Part shown: positions 8,048-30,889 of the stretch, in pieces
How positions within the stretch are numbered: the first letter of the stretch is position 1
Layout of the letters: every line of letters begins with the position of its first letter
From: Streptomyces sp. Root1304
GTDB lineage: Bacteria > Actinomycetota > Actinomycetes > Streptomycetales > Streptomycetaceae
NCBI RefSeq assembly: GCF_001426405.1
Contig: NZ_LMEP01000003.1
Location: 124,001-188,000, forward strand
Length of the DNA stretch: 64,000 nucleotides
Reading direction: 5' to 3'
The notes under the pieces: model-generated
Told to the model about the DNA's origin: nothing
Databases searched by the model: none
Seen by the model: the letters and a program-made list of their open reading frames with translations, nothing else
Program-made: the position numbers and the translations under genes

Positions 8048-8077
8048 GCTTCTGCCCGTACGTTCCGGGGCTCGCGC

Positions 8078-8906: not shown

Positions 8907-9359
8907 TCAGGCGTTCGGGCGGAGGGTCCAGACGACGGTCATCTCGCCGGTGACGGCGCCGTCCTCGCGGGTGATGTCGATCCGCACCGGGAACTCCGGC
9001 CGCTGCCCGGCGTCGAGTTCGGCGACGACCTCGGCGACCGGGCGGCCCAGGGTGGCGGTGGCCGTGACGACGCCCATGGCGAGCTTCTTGTAGCCGATCT
9101 CCGCCTTGACGGCGAGCGGCACGGCGCGGCTCAGCTGGTCGCCGAAGGCGGCGATGACGATGGCGCCGCTGGCGGACTCGGCCAGGGTGAACATCGCGCC
9201 GGCGTGCGGGCCGCCGACGTGGTTGTGGTAGGCGGACTGGTCCGGCAGGCGCACGACGGCCCGCTCGGCGGTGGTCTCCAGGAACTCCAGGTTGAGGGTT
9301 CCTGCCATGGGCACCGTGGCGGCGAGCATCTCGCCGACGGTCATCTGGTCTGCGCTCAT
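8907..9359 (-). CDS. Hotdog-fold thioesterase-like protein (DUF4442/PaaI type)
   Basis: This 150-residue single hotdog domain has the motif SAYHNHVGGPHAGAMFTLAE, which matches the helix-capping N-H-x-G-G-x-H-x-G-A pattern of PaaI/YiiD-like thioesterases. It probably hydrolyses an acyl-CoA of unknown identity. The start is ATG 9359 (MSADQMTVGEML); the frame is open further upstream but runs into the divergent promoter. Confidence 0.8.
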   Translation of the reverse strand: MSADQMTVGEMLAATVPMAGTLNLEFLETTAERAVVRLPDQSAYHNHVGGPHAGAMFTLAESASGAIVIAAFGDQLSRAVPLAVKAEIGYKKLAMGVVTATATLGRPVAEVVAELDAGQRPEFPVRIDITREDGAVTGEMTVVWTLRPNA

Positions 9360-9477
9360 GAACCCAGAGGTTACCGACCAGTAGAAGCCTTGGCCATCCC
9401 CCGCGGACACCTTCACGCGCGCCCGCTCAGGGGGCGGGCGTGGTCGAGCGGTCCCCGCACCTCTATGGTTACTGGCC

Positions 9478-10599
9478 ATGTGGCCAGGACAGCAGCCGCC
9501 CGGGGGCGAGCAGAACCCGCAGGACCAGAATCAGAACCCCTACCAGCAGTCGGGGTACCAGCAGCCGAACCCGTATCAGCAGCCGCCGACCCAGCCCGGG
9601 TACCCGCAGCCGCCGACGCAGCCCGGCTACCCGCAGCAGCCGCCCGCGGGTCCGGGCTACCCGCAGCAGGGGTACGGCCAGCAGCCGGGTTACGGGCAGC
9701 CGAACCCGTACCAGCAGCCGACCGCGCCCGCGCAGTACGCGGTGCCGGGACCGGGCGGGCCCGGCGGCCCCGACGGCGGGAAGAAGAAGCAGACCACCCT
9801 GATCGCGATCGTCGCCGCGACGGCCGTGGTCGTCGCCGCCGGTGTCACCGGGTTCCTGGTGCTCGGTGACGACGACGACAAGAAGCCCGAGGCCGACGGC
9901 AAGAAGCCGTCCGTGACGGCCTCGGTGGACCCGTCCGCCGACCCGTCGACGGATCCGAGCAGCTCGCCGACCATCGCCAACCCGCGCGACGGCGCCGCCC
10001 AGCAGCCGACGATCCCGGGCTGGAAGGTCGTCTACAACCCGAAGTACGGCACCCTCTTCGACGTACCGCCGGAGTGGGAGGTGCTCAAGCCCGGGACGAT
10101 CACCTTCTTCGAGGACGAGAAGAAGAACGACGGCAGCCCGCTCGTCACGATGTCGAGCCCCACCCGCCTCAAGAGCGAGTGGTGCACCTTCGACACCGAC
10201 AAGAACGGCACCAACGAGACCTGGGGCCTCAGCACCGCCGGCACCAAGGGCGGCCAGGGCGCCAAGAACACCTCGGACGCCGCGTACAGCGAGGCCGGTA
10301 CCTGGGTGTGGGGCGGCTACGCGCAGCACATGCCGCAGAGCACCATCAAGATCACCAAGGCCGTGCCGTACAAGACCAAGTCCGGTCTCACCGGCAGCAT
10401 GGCGACGGCCAAGGCGCCGAACGTCAAGAAGCGCAACAAGTGCGAGACCGACGGCAAGTCGCTCGCCTTCACCTTCAAGAACGCCAAGGGCGACTTCTCG
10501 ACCTTCGTGCTCTACGCGGCCGACGGCGTCGCGGACGAGCTGCCGGACGCGACGATCATGCAGATCCTCTCCACGGTCCGGCTCTCCTCGGGCTCCTGA
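9478..10599 (+). CDS. Membrane-anchored protein with YPQ-rich cytoplasmic N-terminus
   Basis: This 373-residue protein has three zones. Residues 1-100 are Gln/Pro/Tyr/Gly-rich with tandem repeats. Residues about 105-128 form one transmembrane helix after a KKK stop (TTLIAIVAATAVVVAAGVTG). After a Thr/Ser/Asp-rich linker, residues about 190-373 form a soluble, presumably extracellular domain (VPPEWEVLKPGTITFFEDE) with two cysteines that could pair (SEWCTF and KCETDG). The layout is common in Streptomyces secreted-domain proteins of unknown function; I do not recognise the outer domain. Confidence 0.75.
   Translation: MWPGQQPPGGEQNPQDQNQNPYQQSGYQQPNPYQQPPTQPGYPQPPTQPGYPQQPPAGPGYPQQGYGQQPGYGQPNPYQQPTAPAQYAVPGPGGPGGPDGGKKKQTTLIAIVAATAVVVAAGVTGFLVLGDDDDKKPEADGKKPSVTASVDPSADPSTDPSSSPTIANPRDGAAQQPTIPGWKVVYNPKYGTLFDVPPEWEVLKPGTITFFEDEKKNDGSPLVTMSSPTRLKSEWCTFDTDKNGTNETWGLSTAGTKGGQGAKNTSDAAYSEAGTWVWGGYAQHMPQSTIKITKAVPYKTKSGLTGSMATAKAPNVKKRNKCETDGKSLAFTFKNAKGDFSTFVLYAADGVADELPDATIMQILSTVRLSSGS
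9538..9730 (+). repeat. In-gene tandem repeats encoding PQ/PGYPQ units
   Basis: About 190 bases encode tandem units of the type Q-P-P-T-Q-P-G-Y-P-Q, with the two clearest copies back to back at about 9586-9640. They form the low-complexity N-terminus of the membrane protein at 9478. Confidence 0.75.
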
Positions 10600-18105: not shown

Positions 18106-19812
18106 CTACCGCCCCGCCCTCCGCTCCGCCTCGCCCTTTTCGCCCTCCTCCCGGCCGGTTCGGACCGGGATGCCCGGGCCCCAGTACGGGCCGTCGTGTT
18201 CGCGGACCTTCCCGTCGTCGTCGAGGACGACGAAGCGGTCGAAGGTGCGGGCGAACCAGCGGTCGTGGGTGACCGCGAGGACCGTGCCCTCGAAGCGTTC
18301 GAGAGCGGTCTCCAGCGCCTCGGCGCTGTGCAGGTCCAGGTTGTCCGTGGGCTCGTCCAGCAACAGCAGCGTGGCGCCCTGCAGTTCGAGCAGCAGGATC
18401 TGGAAGCGGGCCTGCTGGCCGCCGGAGAGCGACTCGAAGGTCTGGTCCGCCTGGCTCTGGAGTTCGTAGCGCCGCAGCGCGGACACCGCCCCGCCGCGTT
18501 CCCGGCCGTCCCGATCACCGTCGCCCCGGCCCAGGATCTCCACCAGCGTGCGCCCGATCAGGTCCGGCCGCTGCTGGGTCTGCGCGAACCAGCCGGGCCT
18601 GACCCGACCGCCGAGGCGGGCGGTGCCCGTGTGGGCGACCGGATCGCCGTGCCGGTCGGGCTCGTGGAGCTCCAGGTCGCTGCCGCCGGCCGCGAGCAGC
18701 CGCAGCAGATGGGACTTGCCGGTGCCGTTGGCGCCCAGCACCGCGACCCGCTCCCCGAAGAACACCTCCAGGTCGAACGGCCGCGTCAGCCCCTTCAGTT
18801 CGAGGCCCTCGCAGCGCACCGCGCGAAGAGCCGTGCGGTCGCCGCGCAGCCTCATCCGGACGTTCTGCTCGACCGGGCGCTCCGGCGGCGGACCGGCCTC
18901 CTCGAAGCGGGCCAGCCGGGTCTGCGTCGCCCGGTACTTGCCCGCCACCGACGCCGAGATCTTCGCCTGCTGCTGGAGGGTGCGGACCAGGTCCTTGAGC
19001 CGCTGGTGCTCCTCGGACCAGCGGCGGTGCAGCTCGTCGAGGCGTTCCAGCCGCGCCGAGCGGGCCTCGTGGTAGTCGCGGAAACCACCGCCGTGCACCC
19101 ACACGCCCCCGGCCTCCAGGGTCAGCACCCGGGTGGCGGTCGCGGCGAGCAGCTCGCGGTCGTGGCTGACGTACAGCACCGTCTTCGAGGAGGCCGCCAT
19201 GGTCTCCTCCAGCTGCCGCTTGCCGGGTACGTCGAGGTAGTTGTCCGGCTCGTCCAGAAGCAGCACCTCGGCGCTGCCCCGGAACAGCGCCTCCAGGGCG
19301 AGCCGCTTCTGCTCTCCGCCGGAGAGAGTGCGCAGCTCACGGAACCGGGCCAGGTCGAAGGGCAGCCGCAGCGCGGCCTGGGTGACGAGATCCCATTCGA
19401 CCTCGGCGTCGTAGCCGCCGGCATCGCCCCACACGGACAGCGCTTCGGCATATCGGATCTGGACGGCCTCGCTGTCCGATTCCATCATGGCGAGTTCCGC
19501 TCGTTCCATGTCTGAAAATGCACGCCGCAATTCCGGTCGTGCGAGGGACACCAGGAATTCGTGCACCGTGGTCGAATCCCGTACCGAACCGATGAACTGG
19601 GGCATCACTCCCAGCCCGCCGACCACCCGTACGGTTCCGGATTCCGGCTTCAACTCGCCTGTGATCAGGCGCAACAGGGTTGTCTTCCCCAGTCCGTTCG
19701 CGCCGATCAGGGCTACCTTGTCACCGTCCCCGACCCTGAAGGACGCATCGTGAAAAAGCATCCGACCGTCGGCCAACCAGTATTCAAGTCCGGAAACCTC
19801 CAGAAACCCCAT
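18106..19812 (-). CDS. ABC-F family ATPase, candidate ribosome-protection/self-resistance protein
   Basis: This 568-residue protein has two ABC domains and no membrane segments. Domain 1 has Walker A GANGLGKTT (about residues 38-46), signature LSGGEQ and Walker B VLLLDEPDNYLD. Domain 2 has GANGTGKSH, LSGGQQ and LLLLDEPTDNLD. A charged inter-domain linker (about residues 245-330) contains the coiled region typical of ABC-F factors that reach into the ribosomal E site. Members act in translation or confer resistance to peptidyl-transferase-centre antibiotics. It is divergent from the RiPP precursor gene, so self-protection is a reasonable inference. Codon use at its first about 120 codons is noticeably less GC-rich than the rest. 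Confidence 0.85.
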   Translation of the reverse strand: MGFLEVSGLEYWLADGRMLFHDASFRVGDGDKVALIGANGLGKTTLLRLITGELKPESGTVRVVGGLGVMPQFIGSVRDSTTVHEFLVSLARPELRRAFSDMERAELAMMESDSEAVQIRYAEALSVWGDAGGYDAEVEWDLVTQAALRLPFDLARFRELRTLSGGEQKRLALEALFRGSAEVLLLDEPDNYLDVPGKRQLEETMAASSKTVLYVSHDRELLAATATRVLTLEAGGVWVHGGGFRDYHEARSARLERLDELHRRWSEEHQRLKDLVRTLQQQAKISASVAGKYRATQTRLARFEEAGPPPERPVEQNVRMRLRGDRTALRAVRCEGLELKGLTRPFDLEVFFGERVAVLGANGTGKSHLLRLLAAGGSDLELHEPDRHGDPVAHTGTARLGGRVRPGWFAQTQQRPDLIGRTLVEILGRGDGDRDGRERGGAVSALRRYELQSQADQTFESLSGGQQARFQILLLELQGATLLLLDEPTDNLDLHSAEALETALERFEGTVLAVTHDRWFARTFDRFVVLDDDGKVREHDGPYWGPGIPVRTGREEGEKGEAERRAGR

Positions 19813-19857
19813 CGATCTCCCGCCCCTCGCCGACCGGTGTGCCGCGTCTGAATCGGT

Positions 19858-19908
19858 TCAATCTCTCACGGCGGTCTTGAGCGAGAGAAATTGCCGTGAC
19901 ACCGTCAC
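19858..19908 (-). CDS. Possible 16-residue leader peptide upstream of the ABC-F gene
   Basis: GTG 19908 opens a 16-codon frame (VTVSRQFLSLKTAVRD) ending at TGA 19860-19858, 45 nt before the ABC-F start. The frame overlaps an inverted repeat (TCACGGC 19866-19872 with GCCGTGA 19893-19899), and TGAATCGGTTCA at 19849-19860 follows. Short upstream ORFs of this kind control many ABC-F and erm genes by drug-induced ribosome stalling. Whether this one is translated is unknown. Confidence 0.4.
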   Translation of the reverse strand: MTVSRQFLSLKTAVRD

Positions 19909-19946
19909 CACCGACCGCCCGTTCGGGGCACCTCCCGTCCGGTCGG

Positions 19947-19963
19947 CGACCACTGGGTGGTCG
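19947..19963. promoter_or_regulatory. 7-bp inverted repeat upstream of the RiPP precursor
   Basis: CGACCAC (19947-19953) and GTGGTCG (19957-19963) form a perfect inverted repeat with a 3-nt centre, ending 58 nt before the precursor ATG. It may be an operator or a leader hairpin. No dedicated regulator gene lies in the cluster. Confidence 0.45.
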
Positions 19964-20021
19964 GAGGCGGGCAACACACGTGCTCCCGGCCGCCCGTCCA
20001 CTCGAAGAGAGGGGAAACACC

Positions 20022-20171
20022 ATGGAGTCCAACGCACAGCGTCCGGAGACCCAGGAGACCGCCGAGCTGCAGCAGGCGGACACGGCCGGCACGCCGGAGC
20101 TCGAGACCGACGGTCTCGTCTTCAAGCGTGAGCTGCTCAACGAGTTCCTCGGCAACCGCGTCCGCAGCTGA
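20022..20171 (+). CDS. RiPP precursor peptide (49 residues)
   Basis: ATG 20022 follows the strong ribosome site GAGAGGGG. The peptide begins with an acidic, Gln/Glu/Thr-rich leader with no hydrophobic signal (MESNAQRPETQETAELQQAD) and continues through ELETDGLVFKRELLNEFLGN to a basic tail ending R-V-R-S. The LVFKRELLNEFLG part looks like an amphipathic recognition helix, and the C-terminal GNRVRS or a little more is the likely core. It lies 43 nt before a run of tailoring, peptidase and export genes. No Cys is present, so thioether or disulfide chemistry is excluded; Arg, Asn, Val and Ser are the candidate modified residues. Confidence 0.75.
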   Translation: MESNAQRPETQETAELQQADTAGTPELETDGLVFKRELLNEFLGNRVRS

Positions 20172-20214
20172 TCACCACCGCCGGCAGCCGACCGACAGAC
20201 CGACGGGGGGAATC

Positions 20215-21714
20215 GTGACCGCAGTGGGCACCCGGTACGCCCGAGCCGAGGGACGCGACACCGCTCTCGTCGTGGACCTCGACGCCTGGCCGCTCAGCCT
20301 GGATCCGTTCCACGTCGTGGATTTCAACCAGGCCCTCGTCCTGGACGCCCTGGTCGACCCGCTCACCCGCGACCTCGCCGAGGGCCCCGGCACGGCGCCG
20401 TCCGCGCTCGCCGCGCTCACCCCGCTCGACGGGGATCGGACCTGGCTGCTCCGGCCGGCCCCCGGCCAGTGCTGGGACGACGGCAGCCCGGTGCGGCCCG
20501 AGGAGATCGCCGCCGGAGTCCACCGGGCCTGGGGACCCACCGGCCTGCCGCTGCCCGCCGCCCACGATCCCGGGGGCACCGGTTCCCCGGTGACCACCCG
20601 GATCGTCCGCGACGAGGCCGACGGCGCCGCGGTCGTCGAAATGCGCTCCCCGCTGCCGCTGCCCCATCTGCCGCAGCTCCTCGCCTTCCCGGGCGCCGCG
20701 CCCGTCCGCGAGACGCCCGACGGCGGCTGGACCGCGAGCGGCCCCTTCCGGCCGGTCCTGGCCGACCGCACCCGCGGCCGCATCGAACTGCGCCGCAAGC
20801 CGTCCCGCCGCACCGGTCCCGGCACCCCGGAACGGCTCGCCTTCCAGGTGTACGCCGACCGCGCCGAGGCCTTCGCCGCCCTGGCCGACGGCCGGCTCGA
20901 CCTCTCGGTCAACACCGGCCTCACCCCGTACGAGTTCACGGCGGCGGCCGCCCGTCCGGGCGCGACCGTACGCGCCCTGTCCATGGCCTGCCAGCTCTGG
21001 GTGCGCCCCGGCCTCGACAGCCCCCTCGCCACCCCGGCCGGGCGCCGCGCCTTCTCGGCCGGCTTCGACCGGCGGGCGGCGAGCGTCCTCCTCCGGCGGG
21101 CGGCCCTCCCGCTCCCGCGCTACACGGACCTGTGGGAGCCGCGCGGGACGAGCCGGGACGGCGAGAGCGGGGCCGCGGTGCCGCCGCCCCCCGGCCGTAT
21201 CCCCCCGCCGGGACGCCGGGCCGAACTGACCCTGAGCTACGCCGACTTCGCCCCGAACGGGGAGGCCGCGGCGCTCGTCGCGGCGGACCTCCGCGCGCGC
21301 TTCGGCCATCCCGTACGGCTGCGCCCGCTGGCGTACGAGGACTTCGCGCGGGCCGCCGCCACGCTCGACTACGAGCTGCTGTACGGCATCAACCCGGCCC
21401 CGCTGGCCCATGTGGCGGGCTTCCTCACCGGCTTCCACAGCACCTCGGGGCAGGCCCGCGCGTTCGGGTTCGCCGAGCCGGCCGTGGACGCGGCGCTCGA
21501 CCGGGCGCTGCGCACGGCCGGAGGGCCGGAGGCGGCGCGGGCCTGGCGGGAGGCGGAGGCGGTGGTGCTCGACCACGCGCCGGTGGTGCCGCTGTTCCAG
21601 GTCAACAGCGTCACCCTGACCGGCCCCGGGTGTCCCGCGCCCGTCGTGGCCGCCACCGGCACCGCGCAGCTGGACGACCTGACCCGTACCGCCGTGCCCG
21701 ACCGCGACCACTGA
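20215..21714 (+). CDS. Family-5 solute-binding-like protein without signal peptide
   Basis: This 499-residue protein resembles the extracellular oligopeptide-binding (SBP_bac_5) fold: WPLSLDPFHVVDFNQALVLD matches the family's N-terminal L-D-P motif, and PGQCWDDGSPVRPEEIAAGV matches the central D-G-x-P-x-x-A-x-D-V segment. Yet it begins VTAVGTRYARAEGRDTALVV, with no signal peptide or lipobox, so it should stay in the cytoplasm. GTG 20215 has GGGGGG upstream; no better start exists. No permease or ABC ATPase of an Opp system accompanies it. Inside a RiPP operon it may bind the precursor or the mature peptide; this is inference. Confidence 0.75.
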   Translation: MTAVGTRYARAEGRDTALVVDLDAWPLSLDPFHVVDFNQALVLDALVDPLTRDLAEGPGTAPSALAALTPLDGDRTWLLRPAPGQCWDDGSPVRPEEIAAGVHRAWGPTGLPLPAAHDPGGTGSPVTTRIVRDEADGAAVVEMRSPLPLPHLPQLLAFPGAAPVRETPDGGWTASGPFRPVLADRTRGRIELRRKPSRRTGPGTPERLAFQVYADRAEAFAALADGRLDLSVNTGLTPYEFTAAAARPGATVRALSMACQLWVRPGLDSPLATPAGRRAFSAGFDRRAASVLLRRAALPLPRYTDLWEPRGTSRDGESGAAVPPPPGRIPPPGRRAELTLSYADFAPNGEAAALVAADLRARFGHPVRLRPLAYEDFARAAATLDYELLYGINPAPLAHVAGFLTGFHSTSGQARAFGFAEPAVDAALDRALRTAGGPEAARAWREAEAVVLDHAPVVPLFQVNSVTLTGPGCPAPVVAATGTAQLDDLTRTAVPDRDH

Positions 21715-21727
21715 AGGGCCGTACCGC

Positions 21728-22621
21728 ATGACGCACAGCCCGGCCACCACCGCACCCGGCGCCGACGCCTCCGCCGCACCAGACGCCTCCCCCACCACCG
21801 CCGGACCCATCGGGCCCACCGCACCGGCCGCGCCCGACGCACCCCACGCACCCCACGCACCCGACGGCCGCAACGCCCCGGCGGCGGCGGCCGCCCTCGG
21901 CCCCTTCCGCCCGGTCGACCGCTCCCCCGCCGAACGGGCCGCGCTCGCCGCGCTGCTGCGCGCCGACCCCGCCCGCCCCGTCCATCTCGACGGCTTCCTG
22001 CCGGACGAGCAGGCGCGGGCGCTCGGCGAGACGGTGCGGGCCCTGCCCGTCTGGGAGACCTCGGCCGTCCTGTGGAACCCGGACCGGGCCGCCACCCGGC
22101 CGGCGAGCCCGGAGGAGTGGCGGGCCGCGCCTCCCGAGGAACGGGCCGCCGTCCGTGACGTGGCACGGGACATCCCGGCCCTGTTCGACGAGGGCTCGCG
22201 CTACGCGGCCGAGCACCGCGCGCGGCTCTCCGACTTCTTCGTCTTCGCCGGAATGGGCACGGTCCTGCGCGATCTGCTCGACCGGTGGACGGACCCCGGC
22301 GGGCCGCTCACCACCAACATCGAGTTCGCTCGCTACCGGTCCGGCGACACGCTCGGGGAGCACTCCGACGCCGAGTCGGACACCCTGTTCGTCCTCAACC
22401 TGTACCTGGACCCCGCTTATCGGGCGGGCGACGGGGGCGTCCTCGGGTTCCGCGACGAGGAGGGCCGCGAGCATCTGATGCCGCCCCGCTTCAACAGCCT
22501 GTCCGTGATGCCGATCCGGCCCGGCTGCGTGCACTGGGTCACCCCCTGGCGCGCCGACCGCGTCGGACGCCACACGGTCAGCATCGCCGCCGTTCCCGCG
22601 ACTCCCGGTGAGGTGAAGTGA
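21728..22621 (+). CDS. Fe(II)/2-oxoglutarate-dependent oxygenase 1 (prolyl-4-hydroxylase-like)
   Basis: This 297-residue protein starts with about 55 low-complexity Ala/Pro residues, then a domain opening VHLDGFLPDEQARAL. The jelly-roll core carries the metal triad H212-x-D214 (GEHSDAESD) and H269 (GCVHW), with R281 (GRHTVSI) positioned for 2-oxoglutarate. Such enzymes hydroxylate or desaturate unactivated carbons. It is clearly a paralogue of the enzyme at 24761, sharing FNS-x-S-x-MPIR around the distal His. The substrate is most likely the precursor peptide. It starts 13 nt after the binding-protein gene and ends 1 nt before the radical SAM gene. Confidence 0.85.
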   Translation: MTHSPATTAPGADASAAPDASPTTAGPIGPTAPAAPDAPHAPHAPDGRNAPAAAAALGPFRPVDRSPAERAALAALLRADPARPVHLDGFLPDEQARALGETVRALPVWETSAVLWNPDRAATRPASPEEWRAAPPEERAAVRDVARDIPALFDEGSRYAAEHRARLSDFFVFAGMGTVLRDLLDRWTDPGGPLTTNIEFARYRSGDTLGEHSDAESDTLFVLNLYLDPAYRAGDGGVLGFRDEEGREHLMPPRFNSLSVMPIRPGCVHWVTPWRADRVGRHTVSIAAVPATPGEVK

Positions 22622-22622
22622 C

Positions 22623-24707
22623 ATGACATCCGGCATCGACATCGGCCCCGCCGTGCCCGAGGAGGCCGGGCCCGGCACCGCGGGCCCCAGTGGCGGCGGC
22701 TCCGTCGTCCTGGCCTTCCCTCCGCTGGTCGAGTCCAGCTTCGGCCGCTACTTCCCGTCGAGCGCCGTCCTCGCCGGGTTCCTGCAGAGCCGCAAGGTCC
22801 GCACCCATCAGTGGGACCTCAACGAGGAGTTCGCCCTCCATCTGCTCGACCCCGGCCATCTGGCCGAGGCGGGGGCGGGCCGGCTCGTCGGTCTCGAAGG
22901 CTGCTACCCCGAGGAGATGTGCGCGGTCGCGGGCCGCTGGCTCGGCAGCCACCGCGACGCCCTCTTCGACGAGCTCGGGCGGCACACCTTCGCCGCCGAG
23001 ACCGGCCCGGCGTTCCTGCTCTCCGCGCTGGCGCAGCCGTATCTGATCGACCCCGAGGCCGAGTGGCTGAGCGACCCGGCGCTGCTGCGCTCGGACCGGA
23101 CGCTGGTCTTCCGTGCGTACTACGCCTCGCTCGGTCTGGCCGACCGGCTGCCCGCGGACGCCCGGCTCCTCGGCGTGTCCGTCCCCATGGGCCCCCAGCT
23201 CGTCCCCGCGCTGCTGCTCGCCGAGGCCGTCAAGCGGATCCGGCCCGACGTGCGGATCGTGCTCGGCGGCCCGACGCTCTCCCTCATGAACGAGGACGAC
23301 CTCGCCCGCCTCCTGGAGGTCCACCGTCAGGTCGACGCGGTCGTCCGCTTCGACGGCGAGGCCCCGCTGCTCGCCCTGTACCGGCAGGCCGACAGCGGCG
23401 ACTGGCGGCCGACCGAGGTCGCGGGGGTCTCCGCCCTCACCGCCGAGACCACGGTCACCGCCGACACCGACGGGACCGACAGCACCGACAAGGCCGCCGG
23501 GCCCGAGGGAGGCGCCGCGACCGACGGTGCCGTGAGGACCGCCGTCCACACCCCGCCCGCTCCGGGCCTGCACCCCAACGCGCTCCCGCCCGCCGCGTAC
23601 GACCCCGCCCTGATGGCCCGGCTCGTCGGCCACGAGATGGGCATCGTCCAGGCGCGCGGCTGCTACTGGGGCAAGTGCGACTACTGCGACTTCGTCGAGC
23701 TGTACGACGGCTCCCCGCCCTACCGGGGGCGCTCCGTGCAGAGCTTCATGGCCGAGCTGGAGCACCAGGTCAGCACGCACGGGGTGCGCCGCTTCGAGCT
23801 GATCACGGAGTCCATCCCGCCCGCGTTCGCCCGACGCTTCTCCCAGGCGGTCCTCGACCGCGGCCTCGACATCACCTGGAACTCCTTCGCCATGGTGGAC
23901 CGGCGCTTCGACGCCGAGCTCCTCCAGCTGATGGTCCGGGCCGGCTGCGAGTACCTCGTCATCGGCATGGAGACCACGAACACCCGCGTCCTGAAGCTGG
24001 TCCACAAGTCCGCGGACCGCGAGGAGAACCTCCGCTTCATCCGCGAGGCCCACCAGGCCGGCATGAAGCTGCGGATCAACCTGATCCCCGATCTGCCCTC
24101 CACCACCCTGGAGGAGGCCATGGAGTCGCTGCGGGACGTGGCCGAACTCGCCGACTGCGTCGAGTCCTTCACCGTCTTCCCGTTCGAGGCGACCCGCTCC
24201 TCCGAGGTCGGCCGCCGTCCCGAGCGCTTCGGTCTGGTCGTCGGGGACGAGGACTCCGGGCTCGCGAACCAGGCGCAGTACGCGCTCAACCACCTCGGCA
24301 ACATCGACCCGGCCATGACCCGCGAGGAGCGCACCGGGGTCCACCGCGCCTTCCAGGACTTCGCGATCGGCCACGGCTCCGCCCACATGCGCCGCACCGG
24401 GGACGAGTTCCTCGACCGGCTACCCGGCGACGAGGAGACGTTCCGGCTGGGTGTCTCCTCCCTGGACGTCCTGCCCCGCGGCGACGAGCTGGTCGTCACC
24501 CACGTCCTGCGCCGTGAGCGCACCGTCCTGCCCGCCGCCGTGGCCAGGGGGCTCGCCCCCTGGCTGGACGGGACGCCGCTGACCCGCCGCGACCTGACGG
24601 ACGCGTACGGAACGGCCGGCGGCACCGCGGTCCTGCGACAGCTCGTCGAGGCGCGGATGCTGACCGCCGCGGCCGCCACCGGACATCCGGAGCCGGTCCT
24701 GACCTGA
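22623..24707 (+). CDS. B12-binding-type radical SAM enzyme
   Basis: This 694-residue protein has an N-terminal region (residues about 25-265) resembling the Rossmann B12-binding domain of BchE-like radical SAM proteins, with LLGVSVPMGPQLVPALLLAE, VLGGPTLS and RFDGEAPLLAL but no D-x-H-x-x-G. A Thr/Asp/Ala-rich linker (about 271-310) precedes the radical SAM core with C347, C352 and C355 in GCYWGKCDYC. Spacing is CX4CX2C, one longer than the canonical CX3CX2C. A C-terminal extension follows. Such enzymes methylate inert carbons or rearrange side chains. ATG is 1 nt after the preceding stop. Confidence 0.85.
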   Translation: MTSGIDIGPAVPEEAGPGTAGPSGGGSVVLAFPPLVESSFGRYFPSSAVLAGFLQSRKVRTHQWDLNEEFALHLLDPGHLAEAGAGRLVGLEGCYPEEMCAVAGRWLGSHRDALFDELGRHTFAAETGPAFLLSALAQPYLIDPEAEWLSDPALLRSDRTLVFRAYYASLGLADRLPADARLLGVSVPMGPQLVPALLLAEAVKRIRPDVRIVLGGPTLSLMNEDDLARLLEVHRQVDAVVRFDGEAPLLALYRQADSGDWRPTEVAGVSALTAETTVTADTDGTDSTDKAAGPEGGAATDGAVRTAVHTPPAPGLHPNALPPAAYDPALMARLVGHEMGIVQARGCYWGKCDYCDFVELYDGSPPYRGRSVQSFMAELEHQVSTHGVRRFELITESIPPAFARRFSQAVLDRGLDITWNSFAMVDRRFDAELLQLMVRAGCEYLVIGMETTNTRVLKLVHKSADREENLRFIREAHQAGMKLRINLIPDLPSTTLEEAMESLRDVAELADCVESFTVFPFEATRSSEVGRRPERFGLVVGDEDSGLANQAQYALNHLGNIDPAMTREERTGVHRAFQDFAIGHGSAHMRRTGDEFLDRLPGDEETFRLGVSSLDVLPRGDELVVTHVLRRERTVLPAAVARGLAPWLDGTPLTRRDLTDAYGTAGGTAVLRQLVEARMLTAAAATGHPEPVLT

Positions 24708-24760
24708 GCCCGTGCCCCGCCCGGGAACCCGCCCACCCCACCCCGTCCGTGAGGAGAACC

Positions 24761-25519
24761 ATGTCCAGCACCACGACACGGCCGTCGTCGCCGGTTCCGC
24801 CGGCCCTCGCCGGCGCCGCACCCTACGTCGCACCGGAGTACCTGACCGCCTCGACGGTCGACCGGCTGCGCGACTGGTACCACGGGGAGGCGGTCCACCC
24901 CCTGCACCTGCGGAACTTCCTGCGTCCCGAGTTCGCCGCGGACCTCGCCGCCGCGATGCGCGCCATCCCGACCTGGTCGCGGCACGCCGCCAAGTACGAA
25001 GGGCGCCTGGGAAAGACCGAGTTCTGGGACGAGGACGTCGACGAGCAGGACGAGGTGACCATCGCCCAGTTCGTCGTCAAGGACATCCACGCCCTGCTCG
25101 ACGAGGGCGCCATGGACCCGGCGCACCAGCGCACCCTCCAGGAGTTCTTCGTCTTCTCGGTGCTCTCCGACGCGCTGCGCGACTGGATCGGCTCCGGCAC
25201 CGGTCTCGTCCTGCGCAAGCGGACCACCATGGAGCTGGCCGCGTACCGCCGTTCCGACGCCCTCGGCGCCCACCAGGACCTGGTGCCGGGGCGGGTCCTC
25301 GCCGTCAACTTCTACCTCGACGAGGAATACACCCCCGACTCCGGCGGGCGGCTCGCCTTCCGCCGCGGCGAGGACGAGGAGTTCTTCGTCGAGCCCGTCT
25401 TCAACAGCGTCTCCCTGATGCCCATCCGGGAGGACTGCTGGCACCGGGTCGAGCCCTTCACCCGGGACACCGTCGGCCGCTACACCATCGCCATGGGCCA
25501 GCACCTGGAGGGGAGCTGA
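24761..25519 (+). CDS. Fe(II)/2-oxoglutarate-dependent oxygenase 2
   Basis: This 252-residue paralogue of the enzyme at 21728 lacks the long Ala/Pro N-terminus. The triad is H171-x-D173 (GAHQDLVPG) and H228 (DCWHRVEPF), with R240 (VGRYTIAMG) for 2-oxoglutarate. The segment before the distal His, FNSVSLMPIRE, mirrors FNSLSVMPIRP in the first enzyme. ATG 24761 has GAGGAG at ideal distance. Two related oxygenases suggest two hydroxylation or desaturation steps on the peptide. The stop overlaps the next gene by 4 nt. Confidence 0.85.
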   Translation: MSSTTTRPSSPVPPALAGAAPYVAPEYLTASTVDRLRDWYHGEAVHPLHLRNFLRPEFAADLAAAMRAIPTWSRHAAKYEGRLGKTEFWDEDVDEQDEVTIAQFVVKDIHALLDEGAMDPAHQRTLQEFFVFSVLSDALRDWIGSGTGLVLRKRTTMELAAYRRSDALGAHQDLVPGRVLAVNFYLDEEYTPDSGGRLAFRRGEDEEFFVEPVFNSVSLMPIREDCWHRVEPFTRDTVGRYTIAMGQHLEGS

Positions 25520-26547
25520 ACACCGTACGCCTGCTGCCCGCCGTCGCCGTCCACGAGACCCCGGACGAGACGCTGCTGACCCTCGGCCCCCGGCTGCTCC
25601 GCATCGGCGGGGCCCGGCCGGGTCTGGGCGAGGCGCTGCGGCGGCTGCGGGAAGGGACCACGCGGGAGGCGCTCGGCGCGGACTGGCGTCCCGAAGCGGC
25701 CTCCGCGCTCCTGTCCGAGCTCCGCGAGCTGGGCTGGGTCACGGGCGAACCGGCCGCGAACGGTACGGAGTTCACCGGCGAGCCGTTCGAGCGGCAGGTC
25801 GACTACCTCGGCCTGTTCACTCCGGACACCGGCGCGGCGCAGCACCGGCTGCTCACCGCCCGGATCGGGGTGATCGGCCTGGGCGGCATCGGCGGCATCG
25901 TCGCCCAGCACCTGGCGGCGGCCGGCGTGGGGCGGTTCTGGCTCGTCGACGACGACCGGGTGGCCCTGCACAACCTCAACCGGCAGTTCACGTACGCCCG
26001 TTCCGACCTGGGGCGACCCAAGACCGTGGCGCTGGCCGCGTACCTGGGCGGGATCCGGGAGGGCGCCGAGATCGTCGGCGTACGGAGGAGGATCGCCGCG
26101 GCCGGTGATCTCGCGGCGTCGCTGCCCGGGGACCTGGACCTGGTGGTCGTGGCCGCCGACACCCCGCCCGAGCTGCCCGCCGTGGTCGCGGAGTGGGCGG
26201 CCGGCACCGGCACGCCGACCGCGATCGGCGCGGTCGCCGTCGGCGTCGGTCTCTGGGGTCCGGTGGTCGACCCGGCCCGGGGTGGCTGCTGGACCTGTTT
26301 CGAACGGGCCCGGCGCGCCGGTCTCAGCGCCCGCGACCGGGAGTTCGAGGACCGGTCCACCGAACCCGCCCCCTTCTCCTTCGGCCCCGCCAATACAGTG
26401 GTCGCCGCCATGCTCGCGCATGACATCGTCGAGTTCCTGTGCAGCGGAACATGCCCCACTCTGGGGCGCCGGGCGGCCCTGGACTTCACGCGTCAGCAGA
26501 TCACCCACAGCGAAGAGAGCACGTGCACGTGTCCGACGACCTCATGA
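25516..26547 (+). CDS. ThiF/MoeB/E1-like adenylating enzyme with N-terminal RRE-like domain
   Basis: This 343-residue protein reads from the CTG at 25516, which forms a CTGA overlap with the preceding stop and has GGAGG at about 5 nt; no ATG, GTG or TTG is available in frame nearby. Residues about 12-78 have the strand-plus-winged-helix pattern of RiPP recognition elements (LRRLREGTTREALGADW, then LLSELRELGWV). The E1 fold follows: GLGGIGG (121-127), D145-D147, NLNRQ (153-157) and the AADTP loop with D215. Cysteine pairs C258/C261 and C309/C313 could bind Zn. Related enzymes are MccB (microcin C), PaaA (pantocin) and TOMM C-proteins, but no YcaO lies nearby, so peptide adenylation resembling MccB/PaaA is favoured. 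Confidence 0.82.
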   Translation: MNTVRLLPAVAVHETPDETLLTLGPRLLRIGGARPGLGEALRRLREGTTREALGADWRPEAASALLSELRELGWVTGEPAANGTEFTGEPFERQVDYLGLFTPDTGAAQHRLLTARIGVIGLGGIGGIVAQHLAAAGVGRFWLVDDDRVALHNLNRQFTYARSDLGRPKTVALAAYLGGIREGAEIVGVRRRIAAAGDLAASLPGDLDLVVVAADTPPELPAVVAEWAAGTGTPTAIGAVAVGVGLWGPVVDPARGGCWTCFERARRAGLSARDREFEDRSTEPAPFSFGPANTVVAAMLAHDIVEFLCSGTCPTLGRRAALDFTRQQITHSEESTCTCPTTS

Positions 26548-28049
26548 CCGATCAGCAGCACCTGCCGGAACCGCGGGCGGGCGAGAAGCCGCCCCCGGGG
26601 GACGGGTCCACCGGCGAGAGGGCCACCGGCGAACGGCCCGGGGGGAAGCCGAAGAAGACGCCGTTCCGGGGCACCGGGTTCCTCCGGCTGTGGACCGGCG
26701 AGACCCTGTCCCTCGCCGGCACCGAGATCACCTTCATGGCGATCGGCATCACCGCCGCGACCACCCTCGCCGCCACCCCGTGGCAGATGGGCGTCCTTGA
26801 GGCCGCGGAATCCGCCGCTGTCCTGCTGCTCGGGCTGTCGGCGGGCGTCTGGGCGGACCGGTACGAGCGGCGCGCGCTGATGCTCGTCGCCAACGTCGCC
26901 CGGGGACTGCTGCTCTTCGCGATCCCGCTGCTCTTCTGGTTCGACGCGCTCACCATGCCGGTCCTGTACGGGGTCGTCTTCCTGGTCGGCGCCTTCACGC
27001 TGCTCTTCGACAGCGCCATGTCGGCCTATCTGCCCCGGCTGCTGCCGCGAGGGCAGCTGGAGCGCGCCAACTCGTGGATGGAGGCGAGCACCTCCGTCGG
27101 CACCGTCGCGGGGCCGGGTCTCGCCGGTCTGCTCATCCAGGTCGTGAGCGCGCCGGTCGCCCTGGTCGTGGACTGCTTCTCGTATCTGATCAGCTGCTTC
27201 ACGCTGGCCGGCCTGCCCAAGGCGGCGCCGGCGCCCGCCGACCCGCAGGACGGCAAGGGTGAAGGCGACGGAGCGGTGGCAGGCGCGGGGGCGTCGGCCG
27301 GGGAGCCGGAGCCGCGGGAATCGCACCGCAAGGCCGTGCTCAAGGGGCTGCTCGTCCTCCGGGACGACCGCATCCAGCGGCCGATGATCCTCGCCGCCAC
27401 CCACTTCAACATCTTCCACGCGATGTTCTTCGCGGTGCACACCCTCTTCGTGCTCCGCGTCCTCGGCTTCAGCCCGGGTCTGCTCGGCGCCACCAGCATG
27501 GCGGGCGGTGTCGCCGGTCTGCTCGGCGCGTCCTCCACCCCCTTCCTCACCCGGCTGTTCGGCCAGGGCCGCGCCCTCGTCCTGGCGTACGCCGCCCCCG
27601 GCGTCTCTGCGGTCCTGGTCCCGCTCGCCGAGCAGTGGGACAACCGCGCGCTCTCCATCGTCCTGGTGTCGGCCTCCACCTTCACCTGGACCTTCGCGGT
27701 CGTGGTCAACCTGGTCATCAGCGAGACGGTGAAGCAGAGCCTGGTCCCCGACCACCTGCTCGGCCGGGTCACCGCCACCACCCGCTTCGTCAGCTGGGGC
27801 TGCCAGCCGGTGGGCGCGCTGCTCGGCGGCTGGCTCGGCGGACGGTTCGGCCTCGCCGAGGTCATGTACGTGTCGGCGGCCGGCCTCCTCACCTCGGCGC
27901 TCTGGCCCCTGCTCAGCCCGGTCCGCGCCCTCCGGGGCACCGAGGGCGGGGAGAGCGAAGCGGACGACGCGCCGGCCGGAACGACGGCCGCGTCCGCCGG
28001 CACCGACGACGACCCCCGCCCGAAGACCGCGCCTCCCACCGAGCCGTAG
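26544..28049 (+). CDS. MFS efflux transporter, probable RiPP exporter
   Basis: This 501-residue protein has a charged N-terminus of about 45 residues, then about twelve hydrophobic segments beginning FLRLWTGETLSLAGTEITFM. The motif-A-like loop VWADRYERRALMLVAN is after TM2, and a long Gly/Ala/Asp-rich central loop (about residues 240-275) joins the halves. ATG 26544 overlaps the previous stop as ATGA, giving translational coupling; an in-frame GTG at 26529 is an alternative. Its place in the operon points to export of the product. The C-terminus is a low-complexity acidic tail. Confidence 0.83.
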   Translation: MTDQQHLPEPRAGEKPPPGDGSTGERATGERPGGKPKKTPFRGTGFLRLWTGETLSLAGTEITFMAIGITAATTLAATPWQMGVLEAAESAAVLLLGLSAGVWADRYERRALMLVANVARGLLLFAIPLLFWFDALTMPVLYGVVFLVGAFTLLFDSAMSAYLPRLLPRGQLERANSWMEASTSVGTVAGPGLAGLLIQVVSAPVALVVDCFSYLISCFTLAGLPKAAPAPADPQDGKGEGDGAVAGAGASAGEPEPRESHRKAVLKGLLVLRDDRIQRPMILAATHFNIFHAMFFAVHTLFVLRVLGFSPGLLGATSMAGGVAGLLGASSTPFLTRLFGQGRALVLAYAAPGVSAVLVPLAEQWDNRALSIVLVSASTFTWTFAVVVNLVISETVKQSLVPDHLLGRVTATTRFVSWGCQPVGALLGGWLGGRFGLAEVMYVSAAGLLTSALWPLLSPVRALRGTEGGESEADDAPAGTTAASAGTDDDPRPKTAPPTEP

Positions 28050-28056
28050 GAGCACC

Positions 28057-29355
28057 GTGCCCGTCCTCAGCCCCGCCCGCCACACCCTCTCAAACGGTCT
28101 GCGGGTGGTCGTCTCCAAGGATCCGACCGTGCCGGTGGCCGCGGTCTGCCTCTGGTACGAGGTGGGTTCCCGCGACGAGCCGCGCGGCCGGACCGGGCTC
28201 GCGCACCTCTTCGAGCACCTGATGTTCCAGGGCTCGACGCAGGTGCCCGCCGGCGGGCACACCGCGGCCGTCGAGGACGCCGGCGGGCACACCAACGCCG
28301 CCACCGGCTTCGAGCGCACGGTCTTCCACAGCCTCGTCCCGGTGGGCCAGCTGGAGCTGGTGCTCTGGCTGGAGGCCGACCGCATGGGCGGGCTGCCCGA
28401 CGCGCTGACCGCCGAGAGCCTGGCCACCCAGCGGGACGTGGTCCTGAACGAGCGCCGCGAGCGGTACGACAACGTCCCCTACGGGACCGGCTGGGAACAG
28501 CTGGTCGCCATGTCCTTCCCGCCCGGGCACCCCTTCCGCGCCCTGCCGGCCGGCAGCCCGGAGGACCTGCGGGCGGTCACCCTCGACGACTGCCGTGCGT
28601 TCTTCGGCCGCCACTACACCCCGGACCGGGCGATCCTCTCCGTGGTCGGCGACGTCTCCCCCGAGGCGGTCGTCGACCTGGCCGAGCGCCACTTCGGGCA
28701 CATCCCGCCGTCCGGTACGGGACCCGGCGCCGCCGGCCCCCTGACGCGCACCGTCGTACCGGGCGCGCCCGAGAAGCCGGTCGAGGCGCGGCGCCACGTC
28801 GTGGAGCCGGTGCCGGGGCCCGCGTTCATGGCCGCGTACCAGCTTCCCGCGTACGGCGAACCCGGGTACGCGGCCGCCGACCTGGCCCTGACCCTCCTCG
28901 GCGGGATGAGCAGCCGGGGCCTGCACGACCGTCTGGTGCGGCGCGAACAGATCGCCCACACGGCGCGCGCGTCGCTGATGCCGCTGCGGTGGGCCCCGTC
29001 CCTCGGTCAGCTCAACGTACGGGCCCCGGCCGGGTCCGCACTCGCGGACGTGGAGCGCGCGGTGGACGCGGAGATCGAGCGGCTGGCCGACGGCGGGGTC
29101 ACGGAGGACGCGCTGGAGGGGGCGCGGGCCCAGATCCGCCGGGACTGGCACGACCGGCTCGCCCACCCGGCCGGCCGGGCCGACGAACTCTGCGCCCAGG
29201 AGGCGTACTTCGGCGACGCCACCCGCTGCGACCGGCACCTGGCGAGCGTCCTCGACATCGGTGCGGCGGAGGTCGGCGCGGCGGCCGCGGAGCTGCTCGC
29301 CCCGGCGCGGCGCGCGGTCCTCACGTACGAGCCCGCGGGGGATGCGGGACCGTGA
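28057..29355 (+). CDS. M16-family zinc metallopeptidase, catalytic subunit
   Basis: This 432-residue protein is a complete M16B-type peptidase (PqqF/MPP-beta group). The inverted zinc motif H50-L-F-E53-H54 lies in TGLAHLFEHLMFQGS, and a downstream acidic residue in the A-A-T-G-F-E-R-T segment is the expected third ligand region. A second domain begins around residue 215. It probably cleaves the leader from the modified precursor. GTG 28057 has GTAGGAG upstream, 7 nt after the exporter stop. Its partner at 29495 lacks the zinc motif. Confidence 0.87.
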   Translation: MPVLSPARHTLSNGLRVVVSKDPTVPVAAVCLWYEVGSRDEPRGRTGLAHLFEHLMFQGSTQVPAGGHTAAVEDAGGHTNAATGFERTVFHSLVPVGQLELVLWLEADRMGGLPDALTAESLATQRDVVLNERRERYDNVPYGTGWEQLVAMSFPPGHPFRALPAGSPEDLRAVTLDDCRAFFGRHYTPDRAILSVVGDVSPEAVVDLAERHFGHIPPSGTGPGAAGPLTRTVVPGAPEKPVEARRHVVEPVPGPAFMAAYQLPAYGEPGYAAADLALTLLGGMSSRGLHDRLVRREQIAHTARASLMPLRWAPSLGQLNVRAPAGSALADVERAVDAEIERLADGGVTEDALEGARAQIRRDWHDRLAHPAGRADELCAQEAYFGDATRCDRHLASVLDIGAAEVGAAAAELLAPARRAVLTYEPAGDAGP

Positions 29356-29498
29356 GCCGCACCTGGCACGACCCTCTGCCCGCGCCTCCGGCGACGACGC
29401 CGTCACTGCCACCGGCACCTGCACCGGCACTCGCCACTCGCCACCGAGACTTCCCGGCCGCCCGTCCCGCCGGTCCTTCGCGAAGGGTCCCCGTATGA
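29352..29498 (+). CDS. 48-residue ORF wedged between the two M16 genes
   Basis: GTG 29352 overlaps the stop of the first M16 gene as GTGA, and the TGA at 29496-29498 overlaps the ATG of the second as ATGA. The predicted peptide is Pro/Ala/Arg-rich (VSRTWHDPLPAPPATTPSLP and onwards, ending R-R-V-P-V) with no recognisable domain. The two-sided 4-nt overlap suggests it is translated to couple the subunits, but its composition is also what a non-coding GC-rich spacer would give. Confidence 0.4.
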   Translation: MSRTWHDPLPAPPATTPSLPPAPAPALATRHRDFPAARPAGPSRRVPV

Positions 29499-30889
29499 AC
29501 GCGCCCGTCTCCCTCTCCCCGGCCGTCACCGGCCGTCGGGCCGCCGCGCCGCGGCCGAAACGGCCCTTGCCGGCGCCGGCCGAGACCTGGCTCTTCCCCG
29601 CGCTGCACGAGGACGTCCTCGCCAACGGCGTGACGCTGCTGACGTGCGACCGCCCGGGCCAGGAGGTGCTGAGCGTCGAGATCGTCGTGGCCGCGCCCCT
29701 CGCCCTCGAACCCCGTGAGCTGGAGGGCGTCCTCGGCATCACCACCAGCGCCCTCGTCGAGGGCGTCCCCGGCCTGAGTTCGCTCGACTTCATCCGGGAA
29801 CTGGAGAACTGCGGCGCGACCCTCGGGGTCGGCGCCGAGCACGCGGGGCTGCGGATCACCCTCGACGTCCCCGTCCCGCACCTCGCCCGCGCCCTGTCCC
29901 TGCTGGTCCTGGCCATGCGCGAACCGCTGCTCCCGGCCGCCTCGGTGGACCGGCTGGCCCGCTCGCGCGTCCACGCCCTGGTCCGTCACCGGGCGGACCC
30001 CGAGCGCCGGGCCGCCGTGGAACTGCACGCGGCCGTCTTCGATCCCGCGGACCGGCGCAGCCGTCCCGCGCGCGGCACGGAGGAGACGGTCCGCCGGGTC
30101 GACCGGGACGCGGTCGTGGCCTGTCACCGCCGGTTCCTGCGCCCCGCCGTCACCACCGTGGTCGTCGCGGGCGACCTCTCCGGCAACGGCACCGAGGAGG
30201 TGCTGCGCCGGGTCCTGTCCACCTGGGAGGGCGAGCAGGGGAAGCTGTCGGCGCCGCCCGCCCCTCCGCTGCGGGAGGACCCGGCGGTGATCGTGGTCGA
30301 CCGGCCCGGGGCCGTCCAGACCCGGCTGGTCCTCGGCCGCGCCGCGTCCGCGCGCACGGATCCGGGCTGGGACCCGCTGCTGATCGGGAACCACAGTCTC
30401 GGCGGCTCCGTCAACGCGCGCCTCGACCGGGAACTCCGGGAGACCAAGGGGTACACGTACGGCTTCCACAGCCGGCTGCTCGCGGTCGTGCAGCACTCGC
30501 TCGCCGTGGTCACCGGCGCGGTGGAGACCTCCGTGACGGGCGAGGCGCTCGGTGACGTCCGGCGCATCCTGCGGGAGGTGACCGAGCACGGGATCAGCGA
30601 GCGGGAGCGGTCGGCGGCGGTCGCGCAGATCGTGGACGCCGCGCCGCTGCGCTACCTCACGGCCTCCGCCGTCGCGGACGAGATCGCCCTTCTGGTGCTC
30701 GACGGGCGTGCGCCGGGCACGCTGCCGGGCGCGTTCCGGCGGGCCGCGGCCGTCTCCGCGGAGGAGGCGTCGGCGGCCCTGCGCGAGGCGTTCGCACCGG
30801 ACCGTCTGGTGACGGTGGCGGTCGGCGACGCCGCGCGGATCGGTGACGCCGTCCGGGAGGTGGCGGGTCGGCCGCCGCGTACCGGCTGA
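29495..30889 (+). CDS. M16-family peptidase-like protein, non-catalytic subunit
   Basis: This 464-residue M16-fold protein lacks HxxEH: the equivalent region reads LEGVLGITTSALVEG. It keeps the substrate-side R/Y signature of the non-catalytic partner in RLDRELRETKGYTYGFHSR (about residues 310-328). Active/inactive M16 pairs form heterodimers, as with mitochondrial processing peptidase and PqqF/PqqG-type proteases. ATG 29495 follows GAAGGG. It is the last gene of the compact run; a 123-nt gap follows. Confidence 0.85.
   Translation: MNAPVSLSPAVTGRRAAAPRPKRPLPAPAETWLFPALHEDVLANGVTLLTCDRPGQEVLSVEIVVAAPLALEPRELEGVLGITTSALVEGVPGLSSLDFIRELENCGATLGVGAEHAGLRITLDVPVPHLARALSLLVLAMREPLLPAASVDRLARSRVHALVRHRADPERRAAVELHAAVFDPADRRSRPARGTEETVRRVDRDAVVACHRRFLRPAVTTVVVAGDLSGNGTEEVLRRVLSTWEGEQGKLSAPPAPPLREDPAVIVVDRPGAVQTRLVLGRAASARTDPGWDPLLIGNHSLGGSVNARLDRELRETKGYTYGFHSRLLAVVQHSLAVVTGAVETSVTGEALGDVRRILREVTEHGISERERSAAVAQIVDAAPLRYLTASAVADEIALLVLDGRAPGTLPGAFRRAAAVSAEEASAALREAFAPDRLVTVAVGDAARIGDAVREVAGRPPRTG

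What the first reader, a model, noticed from the sequence alone, without database searches (positions are those of the whole stretch)
18106..30889. Candidate new RiPP pathway combining B12-radical SAM, two 2OG oxygenases, RRE-E1, M16 pair and divergent ABC-F
A 49-residue Cys-free precursor (20022-20171) leads an operon of a signal-less binding-protein fold, two paralogous Fe/2OG oxygenases with intact HxD...H/R, a B12-type radical SAM enzyme, a ThiF-like enzyme with an RRE-like N-terminus, an MFS exporter and an M16 heterodimer. Individual families are known from RiPP chemistry (MccB/PaaA, PoyB/C-type methylation, PqqF-type cleavage), but I do not know a class using all of them together. The ABC-F neighbour suggests that the product acts on the ribosome. 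Arg/Asn/Val/Ser near the precursor C-terminus are the likely modified sites. It may be an undescribed class; novelty itself was not tested.
Basis: partly seen in the sequence, partly recalled or inferred. Interest (0 to 1): 0.93.

Follow-up and report, generated by a model that had tools for sequence, protein, structure and literature searches.

The report
Ribosomal-peptide antibiotic pathway, likely ribosome-directed
This Streptomyces operon encodes a 49-residue peptide next to genes for peptide-modifying enzymes and recurs in other Streptomyces; it is predicted to make a small arginine-containing antibiotic that likely acts on ribosomes, with a gene set that our literature searches did not find described.

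The parts
20022..20171 (+). precursor peptide, 49 aa, ends GNRVRS
   Evidence: profile hits only in E1-positive genomes, 9 of 295; 31 database relatives; control
20215..21714 (+). cytosolic OppA-fold oligopeptide-binding protein (SBP)
   Evidence: Pfam SBP_bac_5 41.3 bits; AF2 model pLDDT 86.6, OppA/MppA folds; no lipobox
21728..22621 (+). OX1, Fe(II)/2OG oxygenase
22623..24707 (+). B12-binding radical SAM enzyme with CX4CX2C motif
24761..25519 (+). OX2, Fe(II)/2OG oxygenase, paralogue of OX1
25516..26547 (+). E1: RRE-fused MccB-fold adenylyltransferase, probable CTG start
26529..28049 (+). MFS exporter
   Evidence: Pfam MFS_1 105.9 bits; present in 9 of 9 loci with a precursor
28057..29355 (+). 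M16A, zinc peptidase subunit with HxxEH
29495..30889 (+). M16B, partner subunit without HxxEH in the window
18106..19812 (-). ABC-F protein, divergent from the operon
   Evidence: both ABC modules with Walker A, LSGG and Walker B motifs

Best explanation
The operon encodes a small peptide together with an RRE-fused, MccB-fold adenylyltransferase (E1), two Fe/2OG oxygenases, a B12-type radical SAM enzyme, a cytosolic OppA-fold protein, an M16 pair, an MFS transporter and an ABC-F, and it likely makes a short arginine-containing antibiotic that is predicted to act on the ribosome. Predicted course: the RRE of the E1 and the OppA-like protein would hold the precursor; the E1 would adenylate a carboxylate and the side chain of the terminal Ser/Thr/Cys would capture it, closing a lactone or thiolactone, most likely onto the Asp/Glu at position -9, as GrcB joins a Glu to the C-terminal Cys of GRC peptides; the oxygenases and the radical SAM enzyme would hydroxylate and C-methylate core residues; the M16 pair would remove the leader; the MFS protein would export the product and the ABC-F would protect the host ribosome. 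Shown: genes, folds, motifs, co-conservation and ABC-F phylogeny. Inferred: every reaction, their order, the ring partner, the cut site and the target.
For: Family of ten genomes out of 392 with a wide gap to other E1s (E<=6.4e-133 against 7.9e-57). Precursor, SBP, E1 and MFS in 9 of 9 loci with an intact precursor, ABC-F in 8 of 9. Five contig lengths occur in the precursor, E1 and SBP database lists alike, three of them (48216, 71646, 8274399) outside my ten genomes. E1 = MccB fold with RRE. Terminal residue always a side-chain nucleophile in the 10 reference precursors and in 24 of 31 database hits; [quoted passage not shown] Number of oxygenases follows the core: two with RVR[S/T], one with HR[S/C], none with NRC, 9 loci. 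M16 peptidase serves a ThiF-like RiPP in the Ind cluster. ABC-F: cluster copies apart from chromosomal copies, one clade sister to ABC-Fs beside blasticidin-S-type genes.
Against: No product is known. Asp/Glu(-9) (23 of 26; the other three have Asp at -10) is no better conserved than an acid at -13 (24 of 26), so the ring partner is open. L021 is an intact-looking cluster without an ABC-F in the 20 kb read. ABC-Fs of this type are chromosomal in most Streptomyces (285 of 295 genomes), and NCBI's resistance cut-offs are not reached (263 of 380 bits). A test for shared change in the ABC-F linker tip was negative. The radical SAM scores 80 of 282 bits for the RiPP C-methyltransferase model. Seven of 31 database precursors do not end R-[STC], all from metagenomic sources.
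Confidence: 0.5

Rival explanations
1. Microcin-C-like reading: the E1 activates the C-terminal carboxylate and couples the peptide to a nucleotide, giving a peptidyl-nucleotide that would hit a tRNA synthetase or the ribosomal P site.
For: MccB is the closest fold and closest solved sequence; an MFS exporter is present; MccB of Bacillus attaches CMP (PMC12250964); the sister ABC-Fs lie beside blasticidin-S-type genes, blasticidin S being a cytosine nucleoside (recalled).
Against: MccB chemistry needs a C-terminal Asn, which is absent from the 26 curated precursors; no gene like MccD, MccE or MccF was seen among the genes called in the nine loci (not searched by profile). PaaA, GrcB, EnfB and IndF show that the fold does not fix the chemistry.
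Confidence: 0.18
2. Other capture at the C-terminus: the E1 activates the terminal carboxylate itself, which is captured by the neighbouring side chain (beta-lactone or beta-thiolactone), by a backbone amide as in enterofaecin, or by an amine.
For: Activation of the C-terminal carboxylate is described for MccB, EnfB and IndF; Ser/Thr/Cys is at the very C-terminus.
Against: I know of no E1 that forms a four-membered ring (recall); an imide or amide would not need Ser/Thr/Cys.
Confidence: 0.2
3. The peptide is a signal or another non-antibiotic molecule and the ABC-F is an unrelated neighbour.
For: Close ABC-F homologues are chromosomal in 285 of 295 genomes; L021 lacks a cluster copy; a signalling role is suggested for GRC and enterofaecin peptides.
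Against: ABC-F beside the cluster in 8 of 9 loci; seven of ten family genomes carry a cluster copy besides another copy (in G037 that other copy is itself a diverged type); cluster copies form their own lineages that track the cluster subtype.
Confidence: 0.12

Closest known systems
Microcin C (MccA/MccB; E. coli, Bacillus)
   Same: RRE-fused adenylyltransferase of the same fold over its whole length; MFS exporter (MccC as MFS is recalled)
   Different: precursor ends in Asn there, R-[STC] here; no oxygenase, radical SAM, OppA-like protein or ABC-F in the described clusters (section 4 part 1)
GRC-type RiPPs (GrcA-GrcF; Streptococcus pneumoniae)
   Same: ThiF-like enzyme with RRE, radical SAM enzymes, C-terminal Cys as nucleophile; precursors here end R-C or R-S/T
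   Different: Glu is four residues from the Cys there, the nearest shared acid is eight residues away here; no 2OG oxygenase, OppA-like protein or ABC-F described there
Ind peptides (IndA/IndF/IndP; Streptococcus)
   Same: RRE-ThiF enzyme plus M16 peptidase and transporter
   Different: C-terminal Ile joined to Trp indole; minimal cluster without oxygenase or radical SAM
Pantocin A (PaaP/PaaA/PaaB; Pantoea)
   Different: Glu-Glu-Asn core; no radical SAM, M16 or ABC-F in the four-gene cluster
Enterofaecin (EnfA/EnfB; Enterococcus)
   Same: RRE-ThiF enzyme activating a carboxylate
   Different: WWIVI core, imide or amide product, ABC transporters
OppA2 (Orf15) of the clavulanic acid cluster
   Same: oligopeptide-binding protein inside a biosynthetic cluster; best single-sequence PDB match of the SBP (E 9.5e-06)
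   Different: the pathway is not a RiPP (recalled); with a profile, generic OppAs rank before it
ABC-Fs beside blasticidin-S-type genes (L113, L114)
   Same: sister group of one clade of the cluster ABC-Fs (98/97 and 100/96)
   Different: nucleoside pathway genes (BlsE and arginine 2,3-aminomutase above curated cut-offs on L113); no precursor, E1 or SBP match

Membership tests
RiPPs made by ThiF-like adenylyltransferases | RRE-ThiF fusion of MccB/PaaA fold | tested here: met
RiPPs made by ThiF-like adenylyltransferases | co-conserved precursor peptide with leader and conserved C-terminus | tested here: met
RiPPs made by ThiF-like adenylyltransferases | ATP-dependent modification of the precursor | not testable with these tools
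   needs enzyme assay; ATP-site residues R156 and K169 invariant and D215 nearly so in 33 sequences (their roles from PMC12250964, by correspondence)
Microcin C | precursor with C-terminal Asn | tested here: not met
   last residue S 17, T 3, C 6 in 26 curated precursors
GRC-type RiPPs | C-terminal Cys with Glu four residues before it | tested here: not met
   Ser/Thr in most; no acid at -5 in 26 curated precursors
GRC-type RiPPs | two radical SAM enzymes and a free-standing RRE | tested here: not met
   one radical SAM gene in 7 of 9 loci; no separate RRE among the genes called
Pantocin A | Glu-Glu-Asn core | tested here: not met
Ind / enterofaecin | aromatic core ending in Ile | tested here: not met
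ABC-F ribosomal protection proteins | two ABC modules with interdomain linker | tested here: met
   motifs at 37/163/184 and 360/462/483
ABC-F ribosomal protection proteins | curated NCBI cut-off (NF000355, 380 bits) | tested here: not met
   263.3 bits; producer model NF000171 216.4 of 800
RiPP radical SAM C-methyltransferase (TIGR03975) | curated cut-off 281.85 bits | tested here: not met
   80 bits, best of the NCBI families
PqqF peptidase (TIGR02110) | curated cut-off 320 bits | tested here: not met
   63 bits for M16A
OppA-type oligopeptide-binding proteins | overall fold | tested here: met
OppA-type oligopeptide-binding proteins | export signal | tested here: not met
   no lipobox or strongly hydrophobic N-terminus in 8 examined
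OppA-type oligopeptide-binding proteins | acidic anchor for a free peptide N-terminus (OppA Asp419, recalled) | tested here: inconclusive
   ADY of OppA aligns with APL by sequence; not checked in the model

The most novel reading that the evidence does not exclude
A ribosome-attacking class of ThiF-adenylyltransferase RiPPs: x-Arg-[Ser/Thr/Cys] cores, held by a cytosolic oligopeptide-binding protein that works as a biosynthetic chaperone, are closed at the terminal Ser/Thr/Cys into a lactone or thiolactone, oxidised and C-methylated, and bind the peptidyl-transferase region as blasticidin S does, with a dedicated ABC-F as the producer's shield.
Probability: 0.25. Interest if true: 0.92.

Novelty: new variant of a known kind. 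Interest (0 to 1): 0.74.

Why it matters
RiPP enzymes of the ThiF type are few and chemically diverse (phosphoramidate, bicycle, thiolactone, imide, indolylamide), and the characterised ones I read about come from Proteobacteria and Firmicutes. This family would bring them to Streptomyces antibiotics, tie one of them to the ribosome through a co-inherited ABC-F, and add an OppA-like protein as a biosynthetic component. Its natural variants (xRVRS/T, KHRS, VHRS/C, AHRC, VNRC), each with its own tailoring genes, make the assignment of enzyme to residue directly testable.

Tried and rejected
Convergent change in the ABC-F linker tip that reaches the drug site: a block table hinted at it, but a sliding-window test put the strongest shared stretch at 419-443 in the second ABC domain. 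Dropped. What remains is 17 sites where the 8 cluster copies share a residue found in none of 13 chromosomal copies.

M16 pair and two oxygenases as definition of the class: rejected, they occur only in the RVR[S/T] loci.

Lower-scoring E1 hits (E between 1e-57 and 1e-40) as members: rejected for the 14 regions examined (one search's twelve plus L024 and L025), none of which gave a precursor or SBP match by tblastn; the other such hits were not read.

Product by recall (antipain-like Arg-Val-Arg aldehyde, guanidine-ring antibiotics): no gene evidence, dropped. Oxygenases acting on the ribosome (nearest solved relative OGFOD1; its substrate is recalled): left as unlikely because their number varies with the peptide core.

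Empty or thin results: Rfam at gathering threshold 0 in the window; the one genome-contig scan gave a single locus, SPB074; plasmid records none at E<=1e-20; radical SAM against PDB sequences none at E<=0.001. A ribosome-binding-site pattern scan was not used as evidence.

Rows dropped before the count of 26 precursors: of the 31 database hits, P0001 and P0008 (near copies), P0009, P0018, P0028 (end RVRP) and P0011, P0021, P0024, P0026 (run on past the motif); window, L020, L023 and the relic were added.

Capped lists: searches scored only the 7996 candidates sharing most words; one search listed only part of its matches.
Full report
OBSERVATION. The genes lie at the coordinates given: ABC-F 18106-19812 (-), then on the plus strand precursor 20022-20171, SBP 20215-21714, OX1 21728-22621, B12-radical SAM 22623-24707, OX2 24761-25519, E1 25516-26547, MFS 26529-28049, M16A 28057-29355, M16B 29495-30889. 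Pfam supports each, with OX1 and the B12 domain slightly under their cut-offs. In the five RVR-type loci compared (window, L016, L017, L018, L026) the E1 frame opens with a CTG that overlaps the OX2 stop, behind GGAGG; since OX2 ends AGC-TGA in all five, the CTG may be a by-product of that ending, and the start is a prediction.

A FAMILY OF LOCI. The E1 protein finds 12 of 295 Streptomyces genomes at E<=1e-30. A ten-row profile built from them sets 10 of 392 Streptomyces genomes (E<=6.4e-133) apart from the rest (best 7.9e-57); among 394 genomes sampled from the class only the window's own reaches that level. Regions were read for all ten (and the window). Nine carry a precursor: window, L016, L017, L018, L019, L020, L021, L022, L023. 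The tenth, L026 (the same contig as L015, Streptomyces sp. SPB074), has an OX1 whose match begins at residue 117 and no match to precursor, SBP gene upstream or ABC-F; a transporter-like ORF (by eye) abuts the break. Gene content of the nine: precursor 9, SBP 9, E1 9, MFS 9, ABC-F 8 (not L021), oxygenase 8 (not L020; two copies in the four RVR loci), radical SAM 7 (not L022, L023), M16 genes in the four RVR loci only (L017 is cut by its contig end in M16A). L020 adds a carbamoyltransferase and a protein with a weak GDSL match, L022 (and by position and sequence L023) a SAM methyltransferase. Database searches give 31 precursors, 38 E1s at E<=1e-50 and 22 SBPs at E<=1e-20, the last two on capped candidate lists. 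Five contig lengths occur in all three lists; 48216 (Dactylosporangium sp.), 71646 and 8274399 are outside my ten genomes, which points to co-location independently of the regions I read.

PRECURSOR. Across 26 curated sequences Arg(-2) is invariant, position -1 is S 17, T 3, C 6, and Phe(-16), Leu(-11) and Leu(-7) are each in 23. C-termini: NRVRS, GRVRS, GRVRT, VRVRS, LRVRS; MKHRS, VKHRS; VVHRS; MVHRC, MAHRC; FVNRC. Of all 31 database hits 24 end R-[STC]; three end RVRP and four run on, all seven with ENA or JGI as only source. The profile finds nothing at E<=1 in 4568 control ORFs and one ORF in each of ten family loci. In 295 genomes it hits 9, all E1-positive, plus a second place in the window's own genome.

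A DECAYED SECOND CLUSTER IN THE SAME GENOME. That second place (G000:C25:364423-364488; L090, L091) is a precursor ending AMAHRC, followed by an SBP whose first part lies in another frame and whose remainder runs in frame into the C-terminal part of a carbamoyltransferase, then a gene 36% identical to the GDSL-like gene of L020: the remnant of an L020-type cluster.

SBP. Present in 9 of 9; directly downstream of the precursor in seven (in L022/L023 the E1 lies between). OppA-like fold, no lipobox in 8 examined. Best single-sequence PDB match: OppA2 of the clavulanic acid cluster, E 9.5e-06; with a profile generic OppAs rank first. In the alignment to OppA the ADY stretch, which holds the anchor of the free peptide amino terminus (Asp419, recalled), reads APL. 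My inference is that it binds peptides whose N-terminus is not free, such as the precursor.

OXYGENASES, RADICAL SAM, PEPTIDASES. HxD...H...R is invariant in 11 oxygenases; the nearest solved relative by profile is OGFOD1 (E 2.2e-12). The radical SAM has CX4CX2C in the 8 examined; a DxHxxG string occurs only in L017. It scores 80 bits against the RiPP C-methyltransferase model, whose cut-off is 282, so C-methylation is a prediction.

Among the ten family genomes seven show two copies, G232 only the cluster copy, G158 (L021) and G010 (truncated cluster) only a chromosomal one; the non-cluster copy of G037 is itself a long-branch type. The cluster copies fall in two clades (the four RVR loci; L019, L020, L022, L023), apart from the chromosomal copies. 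A single origin of all eight is not shown (two changes, one with 81/70). The second clade is joined (98/97; 100/96) by ABC-Fs of G060 and G018. On L113 these lie beside genes that pass curated cut-offs for cytosylglucuronate decarboxylase BlsE (640 of 400 bits) and arginine 2,3-aminomutase (640 of 600 bits); L114 shows the same arrangement by eye. They are blasticidin-S-type clusters, and blasticidin S binds the ribosomal P site (recalled). This is the best evidence for a ribosomal target, and it is indirect.

LITERATURE. Ten searches (61 was on OppA2, 62 on ABC-F) listed no paper on this gene set; most listed papers were seen as titles and abstract starts only. Opened: PMC12250964 (outline, passages, section 4 part 1, sections 14 and 17), PMC12150305 (parts 1 and 2 of 3), and passages of PMC13361665, PMC10885120, PMC6382702, PMC8546547, PMC7136475, PMC12710340 and PMC12707348. 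PMC12250964 treats four types and does not contain the word Streptomyces. PMC12150305 collected 27,400 RRE-ThiF candidates and says that several network groups may encode new chemistry (Figure S1, not seen); this family may be among them.

MECHANISM. In the characterised relatives a carboxylate is adenylated and captured by a nucleophile. Here the residue that is always a side-chain nucleophile is the last one, and GrcB gives a precedent with a C-terminal Cys and an internal Glu. Asp/Glu(-9) is the nearest widely shared acid (23 of 26; Asp at -10 in the rest), but an acid at -13 is as common (24 of 26), so the ring partner stays open. My odds: (thio)lactone with an internal acid about 0.4, other C-terminal capture 0.2, nucleotide conjugate 0.18, the rest undecided. 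The number of oxygenases follows the core (two with RVR, one with HR[SC], none with NRC; nine loci), which fits hydroxylation of the peptide.

VERDICT. A real, conserved RiPP pathway; a new variant of the ThiF-adenylyltransferase RiPPs; chemistry and target are predicted, not shown.

Noticed in passing
L091 about 5909-9535 and L090 (own genome, contig C25): Decayed second cluster of the carbamoyltransferase subtype: precursor ending AMAHRC, broken SBP running into a carbamoyltransferase C-terminus, GDSL-like gene.
   Followed up: partly
L026 8772-11190 (Streptomyces sp. SPB074): Cluster truncated at its 5' side: OX1 lacks its first part; precursor, SBP and ABC-F are gone.
   Followed up: partly
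L113 1290-10774; L114 9186-19537: ABC-Fs of the same type beside blasticidin-S-type genes (BlsE, arginine 2,3-aminomutase; families tested on L113 only), sister to one clade of the cluster ABC-Fs.
   Followed up: partly
L069-L074: Another recurrent cluster type: 315-aa ThiF-like protein, a 413-aa unknown protein, one or two B12-type radical SAM genes, with P450- and MFS-like ORFs (by eye); in L074 an ABC-F 61% identical to the window's lies alongside.
   Followed up: partly
window 22623-24707: Radical SAM cluster motif is CX4CX2C (CYWGKCDYC) instead of CX3CX2C, in all 8 homologues examined.
   Followed up: partly
window 25516: E1 probably starts at a CTG overlapping the OX2 stop behind GGAGG; the same in L016, L017, L018 and L026.
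   Followed up: partly
L020 11119-15022; L022 12332-13078: The Cys-ended subtypes carry extra transferases: a carbamoyltransferase (L020, and its remnant in L091) or a SAM methyltransferase (L022, L023).
   Followed up: partly
window about 47890-48630 (+) and 56280-57035 (-): Three identical 13-base strings recur on the opposite strand in mirrored order, which suggests a pair of inverted paralogous genes.
   Followed up: no
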